NCBI RefSeq assembly: GCF_025362505.1
Contig: NZ_JANYGG010000061.1
Coordinates: forward strand, 1 to 39,533
Direction of reading: 5' to 3'
DNA length: 39,533 bases
Source: Sphingomonas sp.
Lineage (GTDB): Bacteria; Pseudomonadota; Alphaproteobacteria; Sphingomonadales; Sphingomonadaceae
Of the stretch, positions 10,264 through 15,385 are shown piece by piece. How positions within the stretch are numbered: the first letter of the stretch is position 1; each line of letters opens with the position of its first letter. The notes beneath the pieces are model-generated. The model was not told the DNA's origin, did not search any database, and worked only from the letters and a program-made list of their open reading frames with translations. A program made the translations under genes and the position numbers.

Positions 10264-10545
10264 TTACATCGCGTTGACGGCCTTGTTGCCCTGCGCTTCG
10301 GTCATGTTGCCGGCGGCGACATTGTCGGCGACCTTGTCGCCCTTGTCCTTGAGCGCATCGGCCTGGTTCGACATCGAGTCGGCCATGGCGTCGTTGGCGG
10401 TGTTGCTGGCCGCGGCGTCGAGGTTGGCGGCGACATTGCCGGCATTCGCTTCGACATTGTCGGCGGCGACCTGGTTGGCATTCTTCTGGCAGGCGCCCAT
10501 CGAAAGCGCGGCAGTGCCGAGCAGTACGAGTGAAAGTTTCTTCAT
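10264..10545 (-). CDS. Small entericidin-like lipoprotein
   Basis: The 93-residue product has a signal peptide with lipobox SMGAC (Cys19). The mature part is Asn/Ala/Asp-rich and helical with loosely repeated VAAN/VEAN/VAAN segments, then SNQADALKDKGDKVADNVA. It probably sits in the outer membrane as an extended lipoprotein. Size and composition recall entericidin or Lpp-like small lipoproteins, but no family-defining motif is seen. AAGGGG lies about 7 bases before the ATG. The gene has its own terminator downstream. Confidence 0.85.
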   Translation of the reverse strand: MKKLSLVLLGTAALSMGACQKNANQVAADNVEANAGNVAANLDAAASNTANDAMADSMSNQADALKDKGDKVADNVAAGNMTEAQGNKAVNAM

Positions 10546-10729
10546 GGATTAATCCCCTTGTTCGGCCAAAGCGGCCCAGTTTAGCGGGCATTCGGCCCAT
10601 ATTGGCGTGCAACGACGATGCCGCCGAAGCAACACAGACACCCCCAACGCGGTCTGCTGCGCATCGGTTCCCGCGCTTCGCGTAATAAGTCAATTGGCGA
10701 TAATCGACAGGCCATGCCCGCGGCGAAAC

Positions 10730-10758
10730 TTGCGGCCAGGGTTGCAACCGCCTATCTG
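10730..10758 (+). promoter_or_regulatory. Probable ssrA promoter
   Basis: TTGCGG (10730-10735) and TATCTG (10753-10758) are separated by exactly 17 bp and lie 7 bp before the first hairpin of the tmRNA acceptor piece. The -35 TTG and spacing fit housekeeping sigma factor promoters of alphaproteobacteria. This is an inference from position and hexamers. Confidence 0.6.
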
Positions 10759-10847
10759 GGTCAGGCCGGGCAACCGGCTATGTCGGTAGAATGTTAGGTG
10801 GAATAGGCATTTCGGACCCGGGGGGCAGTACCCCGGCGCCTCCACCA

Positions 10848-10896
10848 CCAGCGGCGGTTGACGCGTCTTCGTAAGAGGGCAGGCGCCGTTGCTGAT
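10848..10896 (+). other. tmRNA intervening segment removed on maturation
   Basis: The 49 nt between the acceptor-piece CCA (10845-10847) and the coding-piece 5' end (10897) would be excised to give two RNA pieces. A second CCA follows at 10848-10850. AGGCGCC at 10881-10887 resembles the acceptor strand and may help precursor folding. The 5' cut is expected from RNase P by the logic of permuted tmRNA maturation. Confidence 0.8.
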
Positions 10897-10982
10897 GGGG
10901 GCGAAATAGGATCGACGAGTGCAATAAAGTCCTGACTGCCGATCGGCCTGAATGCGCCGTAAAACCGTTCATAACCACAAGT

Positions 10983-11018
10983 GCCAACGATAACGAGGCG
11001 CTCGCGATTGCCGCGTAA
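10983..11018 (+). other. tmRNA proteolysis tag reading frame
   Basis: GCC AAC GAT AAC starts an open frame reading A-N-D-N-E-A-L-A-I-A-A and ending with TAA at 11016-11018. It is preceded by ACCACAAGT, close to the usual resume-site context. The ANDN start and hydrophobic LAIAA end match ClpXP-type ssrA tags of alphaproteobacteria. The alanine carried by tmRNA itself would precede the first residue. Confidence 0.95.
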
Positions 11019-11186
11019 CTGAGGGCCTAACGGTCTAAGGTTATATGGACAAAAGCGCGGTTGGACCCCACCGGGCAACAGAAGGGGATTCCAGCGGCTT
11101 CCGGAGGAGCCGGGCAACAGAATCCTCCGGACCTTTTGCTTGATTTGCCACGGGAGCCTGTCGACCGGGCCGACCCCCGAAAACGC

Positions 11187-11218
11187 GGAGCCGGGCAACA
11201 GAATCCTCCGGACCTTTT
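11187..11218 (+). repeat. Second copy of tmRNA 3' hairpin segment
   Basis: These 32 bases are identical to 11106-11137, the loop and 3' arm of the last tmRNA hairpin together with its CCTTTT tail, shifted by 81 bp. A third, shorter copy of CCGGGCAACAGAA lies at 11071-11083. The second copy has lost most of the 5' arm and keeps only CGGAG/CTCCG. It lies between ssrA and the amidohydrolase gene and could be a degenerate tandem duplication or a second weak terminator. Confidence 0.85.
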
Positions 11219-11297
11219 CATCCCGTAACTTAGCCCTTGCGGGCTTCGCACAAGCATCGCAGACCTGCCCTCGATCAATCTTCGAGGGGGAAATCGC

Positions 11298-13346
11298 ATG
11301 TCCAAATCACGCCTGCTGCTCGCGCTCAGCCTTGCCGTCGCGCCCGCCGCGCTGATGGCGGCACCCGCGACCAAGGAGCAGCTGCTCGTCGCCCCGGCGG
11401 GCGCACGCCATTACACCATCAGCTCGATCGCCGGGAAGCATGGCGATGTCTGGTCGTGGGCGCTGACCGATGGGCGCACCGCCTACCGCATGTCGATGTC
11501 GCTGCGCGGCTGGATCACCGAGACCGACGAGGTCGACACGGCGGGCGCCGACGGCCGGCCGACGCGGATCGCGGTGCGCGGCTTTACCGACAATGGCGAC
11601 GCGACCGAGGATTATAGCGTCGGCGGCGATGGCGTCGCGACGTGGAAGACCGCAGTCGACGGCGGCTCGGCGCCACTCGGGGCGAAGCGTTACTCGGCCT
11701 ATGGCGGTCCGTGGCTTGCCCAAGAGCGGGACGTTGCCGCGCTCGTCGCGGCGGGCGACAAGGGGATCGACATGCTTCCGGGCGGCCATTCCCGGATCCG
11801 TATCGGCCAGCCGATGACCATCGACGCGCCGGGCGGTGCAAGGTCGCTCAAGCTGGCATTTATCGAAGGATCCAGTTTCGCGCCGACGCCGGTATGGCTC
11901 GACGCGGATAACCGTTTCTTCGGCAATGCCGGGCAAATCTCGCTGCTGCCCGCGGGAAGTGAAGTGCTCGGCCCCAAGCTCAAGGACATCCAGGAGAAAG
12001 CCGTCGAGGGCCTTGTGCGCGATGTCGCGCACCGCTTCCTCAGCCCGGCGCATCGCACGCCAACGCTGTTCGACCATGTCAAATTGTTCGACTCGGTCGC
12101 CGGGCGCTACCTCGCCGACCGCGCGGTGCTGGTCGCCAACGGCAAGGTCGCGGCGGTCGGTGCGGGCGGATCGCTCCGCGCGCCGGCGGGCACCACGCGG
12201 ATCGACGGGCGCGGCAAGACACTGCTTCCCGGCTTGTGGGATTCGCACCAGCACGTCGGCGGCGATGACTGGAACCTGCTGCAGAATGTCGCCACGGGCA
12301 TGACCAATTATCGCAGTCCGGGCTCGCTGATCGTCGATGCGCTGAGCATTACCAAGCGCCGCGCTGCGGGCGACCTGCTAGCGCCCGAGGGCAAGATCTC
12401 GGTGATCATCGACCGCAAGGATCCGCTTGCCGCGCAGGGCGCGCTGACCGTTACTTCGGCGGCCGAGGCGATCGCCGCGGTCGACAAGATCAAGGCGGCC
12501 GGGCTGTGGGGCGCCAAATTCTACACCTCGATGACCCCGGCGTGGATCGCCCCGGCAGCGGCCGAGGCGCACCGGCTGGGCTTGCACGTCCACGGCCACG
12601 TGCCTGCCGGAATGCGCCCGCTCGACGCCGTGCGCGCCGGCTATGACGAAATCACCCACATCAATTTCATCATGATGCAGGCGATGCCGCAGGAGGTGGT
12701 CGACAAGGCCAACACCGCCGCCCGGCTCGAGGGCCCGGCCAAATATGGCAAGGACGTCGACCTCGATTCGCCGGCGATGAAGGCGTTCTACGCCGAGCTG
12801 GCGAAGCGCGGCACGATCGTCGATCCGACGCTGACCGTGTGGGAGCAGCTGATGACCTCCGACGGAAGCGCGCTCTCGCCCGAATATGCCCCGTTCGCCG
12901 CGATTTCCCCGCCGGCGGTCGCGCGCGGCTGGAAGATCGCCGGCTATCCGCTGTTCGACGGGCTGACCCGCGACGATTTCCGCAAGAGCTTTGCCAAGAT
13001 GGTCGGGCTGGTCGGCCGGCTGCACCAGGCCGGGGTGCGGATTGTCGCCGGGACCGATGGCGCCGGCCTCGAGCTGGTGCGCGAGCTCGAGCTCTATCGG
13101 CAGGCGGGCCTGTCCAATGCCGAAGCGCTGCAGACCGCGACGATCATCCCCGCGCGGATGACCGGAATGGCCGACCGGGTCGGATCGATCGCGCCGGGCA
13201 AGACCGCCGACCTGATCCTGGTCGACGGCGATGTGGAGCAGAGCCTCGCCGCGCTCCGCCAAATCGACAAGGTCGTTCTCGACGGCAATCTGCTCGACGG
13301 GGACGACTTGCGTGCCGCGGCGGGGTTCAGCGGGCGGCCTCGGTAA
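11298..13346 (+). CDS. Secreted amidohydrolase-superfamily protein
   Basis: The 682-residue protein has a signal peptide ending near LMAAPA, an unusual N-terminal domain of about 240 residues rich in beta-like segments (WSWALTDGRTAYRMSMS, LPAGSEVLGPKL), and a C-terminal amidohydrolase domain. The latter shows the metal-binding DSHQH (His317, His319), HVHGHVPAG, EITHINF and a late GTDGAG (Asp587), closing with the usual GSIAPGKTADLILVDGD. Relatives include imidazolonepropionase-like and prolidase-like peptidases; the substrate is unknown. GAGGGGG lies before the ATG at 11298. The downstream hybrid kinase gene starts 47 bp after the stop and may be co-transcribed. Confidence 0.9.
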   Translation: MSKSRLLLALSLAVAPAALMAAPATKEQLLVAPAGARHYTISSIAGKHGDVWSWALTDGRTAYRMSMSLRGWITETDEVDTAGADGRPTRIAVRGFTDNGDATEDYSVGGDGVATWKTAVDGGSAPLGAKRYSAYGGPWLAQERDVAALVAAGDKGIDMLPGGHSRIRIGQPMTIDAPGGARSLKLAFIEGSSFAPTPVWLDADNRFFGNAGQISLLPAGSEVLGPKLKDIQEKAVEGLVRDVAHRFLSPAHRTPTLFDHVKLFDSVAGRYLADRAVLVANGKVAAVGAGGSLRAPAGTTRIDGRGKTLLPGLWDSHQHVGGDDWNLLQNVATGMTNYRSPGSLIVDALSITKRRAAGDLLAPEGKISVIIDRKDPLAAQGALTVTSAAEAIAAVDKIKAAGLWGAKFYTSMTPAWIAPAAAEAHRLGLHVHGHVPAGMRPLDAVRAGYDEITHINFIMMQAMPQEVVDKANTAARLEGPAKYGKDVDLDSPAMKAFYAELAKRGTIVDPTLTVWEQLMTSDGSALSPEYAPFAAISPPAVARGWKIAGYPLFDGLTRDDFRKSFAKMVGLVGRLHQAGVRIVAGTDGAGLELVRELELYRQAGLSNAEALQTATIIPARMTGMADRVGSIAPGKTADLILVDGDVEQSLAALRQIDKVVLDGNLLDGDDLRAAAGFSGRPR

Positions 13347-13393: not shown

Positions 13394-15385
13394 ATGAACG
13401 AGCTGCGACGATTGGCCTGGCTGGTGGCGGCCGCAGCGCTCGTTCCGTTATTGCTGTTCCTAATCCTGCAATCGGGTTTCAGCGCCCGCGAGCAGCGTCG
13501 CTCGGTTGAACAACGCGCGCTCGCCTCGGCCACGATGATGATCGCCAGCACCGATGGTGAGGTGAAGCGCCATTTCGCCGCGCTCGACGCGATCGCGACC
13601 ACGCGCTCGCTGCGCGATGGCAACCTGGCCGAATTCAAGTCGCGCGCGGTCGAGCTGATCGGACTCAATCGCGACTGGACCGAGCTGATCCTGAGTGACG
13701 CCCTCACCGGCAAGCTGCTGGCCAAGGTCGGCACTGACGGCACCGCACTGGACCTCGACCACCTTCCGCCGCCCAGCGAGAGCCCGCGGTTCGCTGGTTT
13801 CGCGCGCGGGCCAGGATGTCCCTGCATGATCGCGGAACGGGCGGCAAAAGGTCCGGCGGGCGCGCGGCTGATCGTTCGCCTGCTGGTCAATACTCGCGGT
13901 TTCGCCGCCGCCATGCCTCCGGCCAAGGGCGATTATGAAGTCACCGCGCTGGCAACGTCCGATGGCCGTTTCATCGCGCGCTCGCTCGGCGGCGAGGCGC
14001 ATTTCGCGAGGCCGGGATCGAAATATCTCGTCGCCGCCGTCGCATCGCGCGCCAGCAGCGGCATCTATCGCGGTATCACGCTGGAAGGGTTCGAGAATTA
14101 TACGGCGTTCGTGCGCTCCCCGCTGTCCGGCTGGTCGGCGCATCTCGCGCTCGGATCGGAACATATCGACGATCCGGCGCGCCGCTTCCTGGCATCGATG
14201 GGTTTTGCCGCGATGCTCTCGCTGGCCTTGGCGGCGGTGTTGACCTGGTTCGCGCTCCGCCAGGTCACCGAGGGGCGGCGCATCGCCGAACGGGTCCAGC
14301 AGGCGCAGAAGCTCGAGGCGCTTGGCCAGCTGACCGGCGGGATCGCCCACGACTTCAACAATTTGATGACCCCTGTGATCGGCGCGCTCGACTTTGTGTC
14401 GAAGCGCAAGGGGATCGATGACTCGGCTCGCCGAATGCTCACACGCGCGCTGGCGTCGGCCGAACGCGCCGGCAAGCTGACCGCGCAATTGCTCGCCTTC
14501 TCGCGTCGCCAGAAGCTGCTGATCGAACCGATCGATGTGGCTGCGATGCTGATCGACGTGGCCGACCTCGTTCGCCAGTCGGTCGGCGACGCCCACCGGG
14601 TGGAGATCGGGGCGGTCGAGCCATCGGTCTGCGCGTTCGGCGACCTCAGTCAGCTCGAGCTCGCCATCCTCAACCTGACGATCAACGCCCGCGACGCGTC
14701 GCGCCCGGGTAGCCTGATCCAGGTGATCGTCACGGCTTCGGGGTCGCCAGACGACGGCGAGGTGGCGCTGGCGGTCATCGACGAGGGCGAGGGCATGGAC
14801 GAAGAAACCCGCCGCCGCGCGGTCGAGCCGTTTTTCACGACCAAGGCGGTCGGGCAGGGAACAGGGCTCGGCCTTGCCCAGGTGTTCGGATTCGCCGCCC
14901 AGGCCGGGGGGCGGCTCGACATCGCCAGCGAACCGGGCATTGGCACCACGGTCACCTTGTTCTTGCGCCGGTGCGACGGCGTGGCGCGTTCCCGGCGCAT
15001 GCCGATCGACGTGACTGCAGCGGCGAGTACGGAGTCGCTTCGCCTGCTGGTGGTCGACGACGACCCGCTGGTTCGGGCGGTGATCGTCCGGCCATTGGAG
15101 GAGGCGGGGCATAACGTCGATGCGGTCAGCGACGGCCAGACCGCGCTCGCGGCAATCTCCCAGCGCCGCTTCGATCTGGTTATCACCGATTACGCGATGC
15201 CAGGGATGGACGGCGCAGAACTGATCCGTCGCGCTCGCGAGGTGCGGCCCGATTCGCGGTTCCTGATCGTGACCGGCCATGCCGACAGCGAGTCGGTGCT
15301 TGGCGCCGCCGGCGAGACGCCGATCCTCAAGAAACCGTTCGACGCCGCCCAGCTTGTCAGCCTGGTTGCCGCGCTCAGTGCCTGA
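13394..15385 (+). CDS. Membrane hybrid histidine kinase with C-terminal receiver
   Basis: The 663-residue protein has a transmembrane helix near residues 8-26, a periplasmic sensor region of about 240 residues that resembles cache-type domains, and a second helix near 268-288. The kinase core follows: H-box GGIAHDFNNLM with His319, N-box NLTINARD, G-boxes DEGEGMDEE and GQGTGLGLAQVFGF. The last part is a receiver domain, VVDDDPLVR to KKPFD, with phospho-acceptor Asp599 in ITDYAMPGMDG. No DNA-binding output domain is present, so it must act through phosphotransfer or protein contact. The start at 13394 fits the membrane helix; the open frame upstream is a shadow of the amidohydrolase gene. Its 3' end is 6 bp from the convergent kinase gene. 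Confidence 0.93.
   Translation: MNELRRLAWLVAAAALVPLLLFLILQSGFSAREQRRSVEQRALASATMMIASTDGEVKRHFAALDAIATTRSLRDGNLAEFKSRAVELIGLNRDWTELILSDALTGKLLAKVGTDGTALDLDHLPPPSESPRFAGFARGPGCPCMIAERAAKGPAGARLIVRLLVNTRGFAAAMPPAKGDYEVTALATSDGRFIARSLGGEAHFARPGSKYLVAAVASRASSGIYRGITLEGFENYTAFVRSPLSGWSAHLALGSEHIDDPARRFLASMGFAAMLSLALAAVLTWFALRQVTEGRRIAERVQQAQKLEALGQLTGGIAHDFNNLMTPVIGALDFVSKRKGIDDSARRMLTRALASAERAGKLTAQLLAFSRRQKLLIEPIDVAAMLIDVADLVRQSVGDAHRVEIGAVEPSVCAFGDLSQLELAILNLTINARDASRPGSLIQVIVTASGSPDDGEVALAVIDEGEGMDEETRRRAVEPFFTTKAVGQGTGLGLAQVFGFAAQAGGRLDIASEPGIGTTVTLFLRRCDGVARSRRMPIDVTAAASTESLRLLVVDDDPLVRAVIVRPLEEAGHNVDAVSDGQTALAAISQRRFDLVITDYAMPGMDGAELIRRAREVRPDSRFLIVTGHADSESVLGAAGETPILKKPFDAAQLVSLVAALSA

What the first reader, a model, noticed from the sequence alone, without database searches (positions are those of the whole stretch)
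10765..11137. Permuted two-piece tmRNA gene with readable tag and visible inter-piece helix
The acceptor half with CCA precedes the coding half. Independent parts agree: a 7-bp acceptor stem with G3-U70 across the two pieces (10837-10843 with 10897-10903), a P2-like helix of about 12 pairs (10931-10942 with 10783-10798, with a bulge), and a tag frame ANDNEALAIAA ending in TAA. The 750-bp region would otherwise be called empty or filled with spurious leftward ORFs. The split form is established for alphaproteobacteria; the tag and loops are specific to this genome.
Basis: partly seen in the sequence, partly recalled or inferred. Interest (0 to 1): 0.7.

Follow-up and report, generated by a model that had tools for sequence, protein, structure and literature searches.

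The report
Ordinary permuted two-piece tmRNA gene
This is the ribosome-rescue RNA gene (tmRNA, ssrA) in the swapped-order, two-piece form usual in alphaproteobacteria; it is ordinary, apart from a doubled pseudoknot at its 3' end and a partial extra copy of that end just downstream.

Summary
The finding holds. Rfam's alpha_tmRNA model covers 10726-11092 (+) end to end at 204 bits, E 8e-58; the general permuted model scores 121.5 bits, and ARAGORN calls a permuted tmRNA with tag ANDNEALAIAA. It is the only tmRNA found in the assembly; smpB is present. Only the remark that the tag is genome-specific fails: 59 of 95 sphingomonad loci share it.

What the tools add lies 3' of the Rfam model. A second H-type pseudoknot with the same GGCAACAGAA loop follows the one at which the model ends. 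Both occur in 95 of 96 family and genus loci, with strong covariation; in the class sample 82 of 84 loci have one. In this genome a 32-bp half-copy of the second recurs 81 bp downstream; the closest relative lacks it. Half-copies recur elsewhere; their origin is unresolved. I saw neither feature described in the passages I read, but key papers were out of reach. Verdict: a new member of a known kind, low interest.

The parts
10765..10778 (+). hairpin GCCGG-GCAA-CCGGC at the start of the acceptor piece (helix 11 of Burks et al. 2005, which takes the place of pk4)
   Evidence: RF01849 alignment; name from passages of PMC1168896
10782..10847 (+). acceptor piece: P2 strand (10782-10786, 10793-10799), T stem 10818-10822 with 10832-10836, acceptor strand 10837-10843, ACCA 10844-10847
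   Evidence: RF01849 alignment; sequence
10848..10896 (+). 49-nt intervening segment, expected to be removed from the precursor
   Evidence: between CCA and acceptor 5' strand; removal is inferred
10897..10943 (+). coding piece, 5' part: acceptor strand 10897-10903, D-loop-like 10904-10915, P2 strands 10930-10936 and 10939-10943
   Evidence: RF01849 alignment
10983..11018 (+). tag reading frame ANDNEALAIAA plus TAA
   Evidence: ARAGORN; sequence
11058..11092 (+). terminal pseudoknot A: S1 11058-11061 with 11070-11073, S2 11066-11069 with 11084-11087 plus outer 11063-11064 with 11091-11092, loop GGCAACAGAA 11074-11083
   Evidence: covariation over 93 sequences; a nested fold of this stretch alone is no better than its shuffles (z -0.2), but that method cannot form a pseudoknot
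11095..11137 (+). terminal pseudoknot B: S1 11095-11098 with 11109-11112, S2 11100-11108 with 11123-11131, loop GGCAACAGAA 11113-11122, then T tract 11134-11137; beyond the Rfam model
   Evidence: covariation over 93 sequences; fold of 11091-11140 gives the 9-bp S2 (z -1.5)
11138..11186 (+). 49 bp present here and absent from the closest relative found (G061); no counterpart in 70 other genus genomes beyond short matches (best 27 bases, E 0.002)
11187..11218 (+). exact 32-bp repeat of 11106-11137 (3' half of pseudoknot B with its T tract), no matching S1 strand upstream

Best explanation
The locus is the genome's only detected tmRNA (ssrA) gene, in the circularly permuted alphaproteobacterial form. 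One precursor is transcribed rightward. RNase P and tRNA 3'-processing enzymes are expected to cut out the 49-nt segment 10848-10896, leaving an acceptor piece ending in CCA at 10847 and a coding piece starting at 10897, held together by the acceptor stem and P2. G3-U70 marks it for alanylation; with SmpB it enters stalled ribosomes, and the frame from 10983 adds ANDNEALAIAA as a degradation tag. At the 3' end the gene carries two tandem H-type pseudoknots with the same loop, where nearly all loci of the class sample have one; the second, with its T tract, is the likely end of the transcript. The half-copy at 11187-11218 is most likely an inert remnant of an insertion or duplication. Shown here: sequence, models, gene order, conservation, covariation, uninterrupted site in a relative. 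Inferred: processing, charging, tagging, termination, inertness of the half-copy.
For: RF01849 204.2 bits full length, RF04321 121.5 bits; ARAGORN permuted tmRNA with tag; single hit in the assembly and no one-piece gene over cut-off; RF01849 over the cut-off in 57 of 59 family, 39 of 41 genus, 131 of 142 class and 40 of 40 order genomes (the window's own genome is in each); smpB 187.5 bits, open frame of 175 aa; tags conserved. Tandem pseudoknots: two in 95 of 96 family and genus loci, the other runs off its contig; 97.5% of cells paired, 18 of 21 pairs changed on both sides, 0 of 500 shuffles reach any of the five measures, slid versions at most 51.2% paired. G061: its matches to window 10900-11137 and 11187-11255 overlap by 32 bp and nothing there matches 11138-11186.
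Against: No RNA data: neither the two pieces nor any end is shown. The consensus scans found no sigma-70-like promoter and no simple terminator in 10500-11350. The score (204.2 bits) is near the low end of the family sample (174.5-242.2; 6 of 57 score lower). Nested folds support only the S2 stem of pseudoknot B; pseudoknot A alone gives z -0.2 and 11090-11222 z 0.04. The assembly has 138 contigs and 5.9% estimated contamination, so the 81-bp repeat could be an assembly product. The structure counted was read off these same related sequences, which favours it.
Confidence: 0.97

Rival explanations
1. The half-copy at 11187-11218 is the displaced attachment-site fragment of an integrative element that used the 3' end of the tmRNA gene and was later lost down to a 49-bp remnant.
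For: Exact 32-bp direct repeat running from inside pseudoknot B to past its end, uninterrupted site in the closest relative found; tmRNA genes are frequent island targets and islands leave gene fragments (passages of PMC4383910, PMC4131195 and PMC11915505). Further motif copies in the next 400 nt at 13 of 95 sphingomonad loci, none on the opposite strand. The window's 81-bp spacing differs from the 44, 44 and 64 bp of the three genus loci with a copy, as separate events would.
Against: No integrase among the nine neighbouring ORFs scanned. No phage record matches this region. Of 61 viral contigs with the motif, 39 carry their own ARAGORN-called permuted tmRNA, and a crude integrase-motif screen found none beside it in any of the 61 (no positive control). 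Elsewhere spacing is short and similar within clades, which fits local duplication better than decayed islands. In L088 and L099 the half-copy differs in sequence from the gene's own pseudoknot B, which a simple att exchange does not explain.
Confidence: 0.3
2. The half-copy arose by local duplication (replication slippage or template switching at a strong hairpin), with no mobile element involved.
For: Near-identical tandem units at G013 and in Caulobacter, Phenylobacterium and Asticcacaulis, with similar unit length within clades; 9-bp stem at the site.
Against: The 49 bp between the copies is not seen in G061 and has no source in 70 other genus genomes; slippage alone does not bring new sequence.
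Confidence: 0.5
3. The half-copy works as a third pseudoknot or a back-up terminator of the tmRNA transcript.
For: Loop and T tract are identical to those of pseudoknot B.
Against: No S1 partner and a short stem (in some other loci, L012, L016, L017 and L025, the loose test did find a 3-nt S1 partner); 11160-11222 folds worse than its shuffles (z +2.0, 197 of 200 shuffles as good); a further motif is seen at only 13 of 95 loci.
Confidence: 0.1
4. The gene is a decayed, inactive tmRNA copy.
For: Score near the low end of the family; extra repeat downstream.
Against: Model matched end to end, tag open, only copy found in the assembly, smpB present.
Confidence: 0.02

Closest known systems
Alphaproteobacterial permuted tmRNA, Rfam RF01849 (alpha_tmRNA); two-piece tmRNA of Caulobacter
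   Same: gene order, CCA-ending acceptor piece first, G3-U70, P2 across the pieces, helix 11 in place of pk4, tag starting A-N-D-N and ending A-A, terminal pseudoknot with loop GGCAACAGAA
   Different: a second terminal pseudoknot follows, beyond the end of the Rfam model; a half-copy of it lies 81 bp further on
Tandem pseudoknots pk4a and pk4b of one-piece cyanobacterial tmRNA (passages of Burks et al. 2005, PMC1168896)
   Same: one tmRNA pseudoknot position occupied by two smaller tandem ones
   Different: there pk4 of one-piece tmRNA; here the last pseudoknot of the coding piece (pk3 in the Caulobacter numbering, by position) of two-piece tmRNA
Genomic-island fragments at tRNA and tmRNA genes (passages of the Islander paper, PMC4383910)
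   Same: gene plus a displaced fragment of its 3' end in direct orientation
   Different: no island and no integrase found; copies are only 81 bp apart

Membership tests
alpha_tmRNA (RF01849) | covariance-model score over the curated cut-off along the full model | tested here: met
   204.2 bits against 50, positions 1-355 of 355
alpha_tmRNA (RF01849) | permuted order: acceptor half with CCA 5' of the tag-coding half | tested here: met
   ACCA 10844-10847, tag 10983-11018
alpha_tmRNA (RF01849) | alanine identity pair G3-U70 | tested here: met
   G10899-U10841
alpha_tmRNA (RF01849) | P2 helix joining the two pieces | tested here: met
   about 11 pairs in the model alignment
alpha_tmRNA (RF01849) | tag reading frame ending in hydrophobic residues and a stop | tested here: met
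   ANDNEALAIAA-TAA; same tag in 59 of 95 loci, this one included
alpha_tmRNA (RF01849) | SmpB partner in the genome, no other tmRNA | tested here: met
   PF01668 187.5 bits; single RF01849 hit, no RF00023 over cut-off, in a draft assembly
alpha_tmRNA (RF01849) | two mature RNA pieces | not testable with these tools
   needs RNA data
genomic-island attachment footprint | fragment of the gene's 3' end in direct orientation with an uninterrupted site in a relative | tested here: met
genomic-island attachment footprint | island body with an integrase between or beside the copies | tested here: not met
   49 bp between the copies; no integrase among nine neighbouring ORFs

The most novel reading that the evidence does not exclude
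In sphingomonads and some related families the last pseudoknot of the permuted tmRNA was duplicated into a tandem pair, and the 3' end of permuted tmRNA genes in Alphaproteobacteria is a recurrent site where short units (a half-copy of that pseudoknot and, in Caulobacterales and others, an inverted copy of the locus's own stem) are inserted by an unidentified small mobile element or by template switching. The window would be a fresh case, with an uninterrupted site in its nearest relative found.
Probability: 0.3. Interest if true: 0.5.

Novelty: new member of a known kind. Interest (0 to 1): 0.22.

Why it matters
As a tmRNA gene it matters only for annotation: the region is otherwise left blank or filled with false ORFs. 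The tandem terminal pseudoknots would matter for where tmRNA callers and Rfam place the 3' end in sphingomonads (here RF01849 stops at 11092 and ARAGORN at 11109, inside the second pseudoknot), and the downstream half-copies give a comparable set of insertion or duplication scars at one RNA gene.

Tried and rejected
Attachment site carried by phages: no phage record matched; four weak Rhizobium plasmid matches at E 0.04-0.1 were set aside as chance. Of the viral contigs found with the motif (49, 18, 61 distinct), 39 hold an ARAGORN-called permuted tmRNA of their own; the others were not resolved. They do not speak for attachment.

Distant islands: in 65 genomes (chosen from the 98 that searches had given handles, G001-G098) the pattern CCNGGCAACAGAA lay mostly at the tmRNA gene; eight matches in seven genomes lay elsewhere. 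I fetched the two that read CCGGG: by eye one is in a coding stretch and one between genes, and I recognised no island; their ORFs were not scanned against a family library.

Second tmRNA in G082 as an island-borne gene: rejected, because the first copy and its upstream flank look identical by eye to the second, so it is a tandem segment duplication that cuts the first copy after the tag.

Origin of the 49-bp segment: not found in the genus genomes beyond short matches.

Inverted copy of the stem as a feature of this locus: only chance level here (8 nt; 3 of 94 sphingomonad loci against 1.3 to 2.6 by chance).

Literature: nine paper searches were answered; I saw no description of the tandem pseudoknot or the half-copies in their listings or in the passages I opened, but I did not open most listed papers. 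For PMC11915505, PMC2704228, PMC1168896, PMC11476347, PMC4383910, PMC4131195 and PMC9004378 I saw found passages only. Keiler 2000, Sharkady and Williams 2004 and Williams 2003 are not held; that Williams 2003 reports an element at the permuted 3' end of a cyanobacterial ssrA is recalled, not seen. The tmRNA Website alignments were not available.

Full report
Observation. RF01849 (alpha_tmRNA) matches 10726-11092 on the + strand over its full length, 204.2 bits against a cut-off of 50, E 8.1e-58; RF04321 (permuted tmRNA) scores 121.5 bits. ARAGORN independently gives a permuted tmRNA at 10753-11109 with tag ANDNEALAIAA. The acceptor strand 10837-10843 followed by ACCA pairs with 10897-10903 with G10899-U10841 as G3-U70; the inter-piece helix is 10930-10936 with 10793-10799 and 10939-10943 with 10782-10786.

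Genome context. The assembly has this one RF01849 match. RF00023 gives 13 matches, all under the cut-off (best 36.4 against 47 bits), one of them the tRNA-Ala of this window. SmpB is present, 187.5 bits, in an open frame of 175 aa. The gene lies between a leftward 93-aa protein with a lipoprotein-like start (10264-10545, judged by eye, no Pfam match) and a rightward amidohydrolase-family protein (11298-13346). Nine neighbouring ORFs scanned against Pfam gave no integrase. Consensus scans found no promoter or simple terminator.

Relatives. RF01849 passes the cut-off in 57 of 59 family, 39 of 41 genus, 131 of 142 class and 40 of 40 order genomes, the window's own genome counted in each. The tag ANDNEALAIAA is the commonest in family and genus: 27 of 57 and 32 of 38 loci read.

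A second terminal pseudoknot. The Rfam model ends at the pseudoknot whose loop is GGCAACAGAA (11074-11083), which by position corresponds to pk3 of the Caulobacter two-piece tmRNA (passages of PMC1168896). Right after it the window has another: S1 11095-11098 with 11109-11112, S2 11100-11108 with 11123-11131, the same loop at 11113-11122, then a T tract. The 10-mer GGCAACAGAA occurs three times in the whole assembly, all here. I read 96 family and genus loci (57 family, 38 genus, and L342 of the family from the class sample; the truncated second copy in G082 was left out): 95 have both pseudoknots, and the other (L107) runs off its contig. Two of the 95 are duplicates of others, which leaves 93 for the alignment. 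On these, 97.5% of cells pair, 18 of 21 pairs show changes on both sides, and none of 500 shuffles reaches any of the five measures; sliding the partners gives at most 51.2%. The structure was read from these related sequences, so the figures are favoured; the many two-sided changes are the stronger part. Nested folding supports the S2 stem of pseudoknot B (z -1.5) but not pseudoknot A (z -0.2), which it cannot draw as a pseudoknot.

How widespread. From the class search I read 90 loci, taken nearly in order of score from the top, so weak-scoring genomes are under-represented; 84 had a recognised tag. Of these 82 have one motif, one has none by the strict pattern though a variant loop is visible (L341), and one has two, and that one (L342) is of the window's family. 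From the order search I read 27 loci of 40 genomes: of 26 with a tag, 5 have two exact motifs close together, in three other families (f139, f143, f144), two more have a degenerate second one by eye (f143), and the rest show one. The tandem pair is thus a feature of this family, patchy in its order.

A half-copy downstream. 11187-11218 repeats 11106-11137 exactly (32 of 32). It lacks the S1 strand and has a short stem; 11160-11222 folds worse than its shuffles (z +2.0). The closest relative found, G061, matches window 10900-11137 at 96% and 11187-11255 at 86%; the two matches overlap by exactly 32 bp in G061, and nothing there matches 11138-11186. G061 therefore holds the uninterrupted arrangement, and this genome an additional 81 bp. 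The 49 bp between the copies has no counterpart in 70 other genus genomes beyond short matches (best 27 bases, E 0.002).

Recurrence. In the 400 nt after the pseudoknots a further motif on the same strand occurs at 10 of 57 family loci (the window included), 3 of 38 genus loci and 2 of 84 class loci, and none on the opposite strand in about 62,800 bases; two of the family loci and one class locus have it only at a distance and may be chance. A pattern scan of genome contigs for two motifs 60-90 bases apart gave 67 stretches, by title mostly Alphaproteobacteria, with some clear non-tmRNA matches (Intestinimonas, Burkholderia, Pseudoclavibacter); ARAGORN calls a tmRNA beside 37 of the 67. Spacing is mostly 73-76 bp in Caulobacter, Phenylobacterium and Asticcacaulis (with exceptions of 41, 54 and 114), 94-98 bp at five family loci (L012, L016, L017, L036, L038), and about 38-46 bp in many Sphingomonas-type loci; the window's 81 bp and the 64 bp of L089 do not fit their genus. 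In the genome contigs set, which was chosen for repeats and holds related strains, 30 of 58 usable loci also carry an exact complement of 8 or more nt to their own S2-S1 arm in the flank, against a mean of 4.1 (at most 8) when flanks are swapped between loci. In the class sample it is 3 of 82 and in sphingomonads 3 of 94, both near chance. The window is one of those three, with 8 nt, so nothing can be built on it there.

Mechanism. As a gene it works like any alphaproteobacterial tmRNA; this follows from established knowledge of the family and is not shown here. For the half-copy, local duplication (about 0.5) and a lost integrative element (about 0.3) both remain open; a working third pseudoknot is unlikely.

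Novelty. The tmRNA is a plain new member. I did not see the tandem terminal pseudoknot or the half-copies described in the listings of nine searches or in the passages of seven papers, but the main tmRNA papers and databases were out of reach, so I make no claim of priority. A known precedent for doubling a tmRNA pseudoknot is pk4a and pk4b of cyanobacteria (PMC1168896, passages).

The number of viral contigs with their own tmRNA is 39 of 61, not 37; spacing figures, the make-up of the class sample and the fold results against pseudoknot A are now given in full.

Noticed in passing
L106 (G082), about 600-1000 and 14460-14900: Two tmRNA copies 13.9 kb apart; the first, with its upstream flank, looks identical by eye to the second up to just after the tag, where it is cut by a tandem duplication breakpoint.
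   Followed up: partly
L109-L175 (genome contigs), for example L163, L167, L162: Arrays of two to five half-copies of the terminal tmRNA pseudoknot, mostly at 73-76-bp spacing in Caulobacterales, many units also holding an inverted copy of the locus's own stem (30 of 58 usable loci of the whole set with at least 8 nt).
   Followed up: partly
L180-L240 (IMG/VR contigs): 39 of 61 viral contigs with the motif carry an ARAGORN-called permuted tmRNA; two-piece tmRNA in aquatic phages is already reported (PMC9004378, passages).
   Followed up: partly
L384, 3' of the terminal pseudoknot: By eye, degenerate tandem copies of the terminal hairpin follow it closely, in another family (f140) of the same order.
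   Followed up: no
window 10264-10545, - strand: 93-aa protein with a lipoprotein-like start and alanine/asparagine-rich body, no Pfam match.
   Followed up: no
G224, G154, G237, G262: Second, weaker RF01849 matches in four class genomes (72.8 bits in G224, over the cut-off; the others 19.7-34.3 bits, below it).
   Followed up: no
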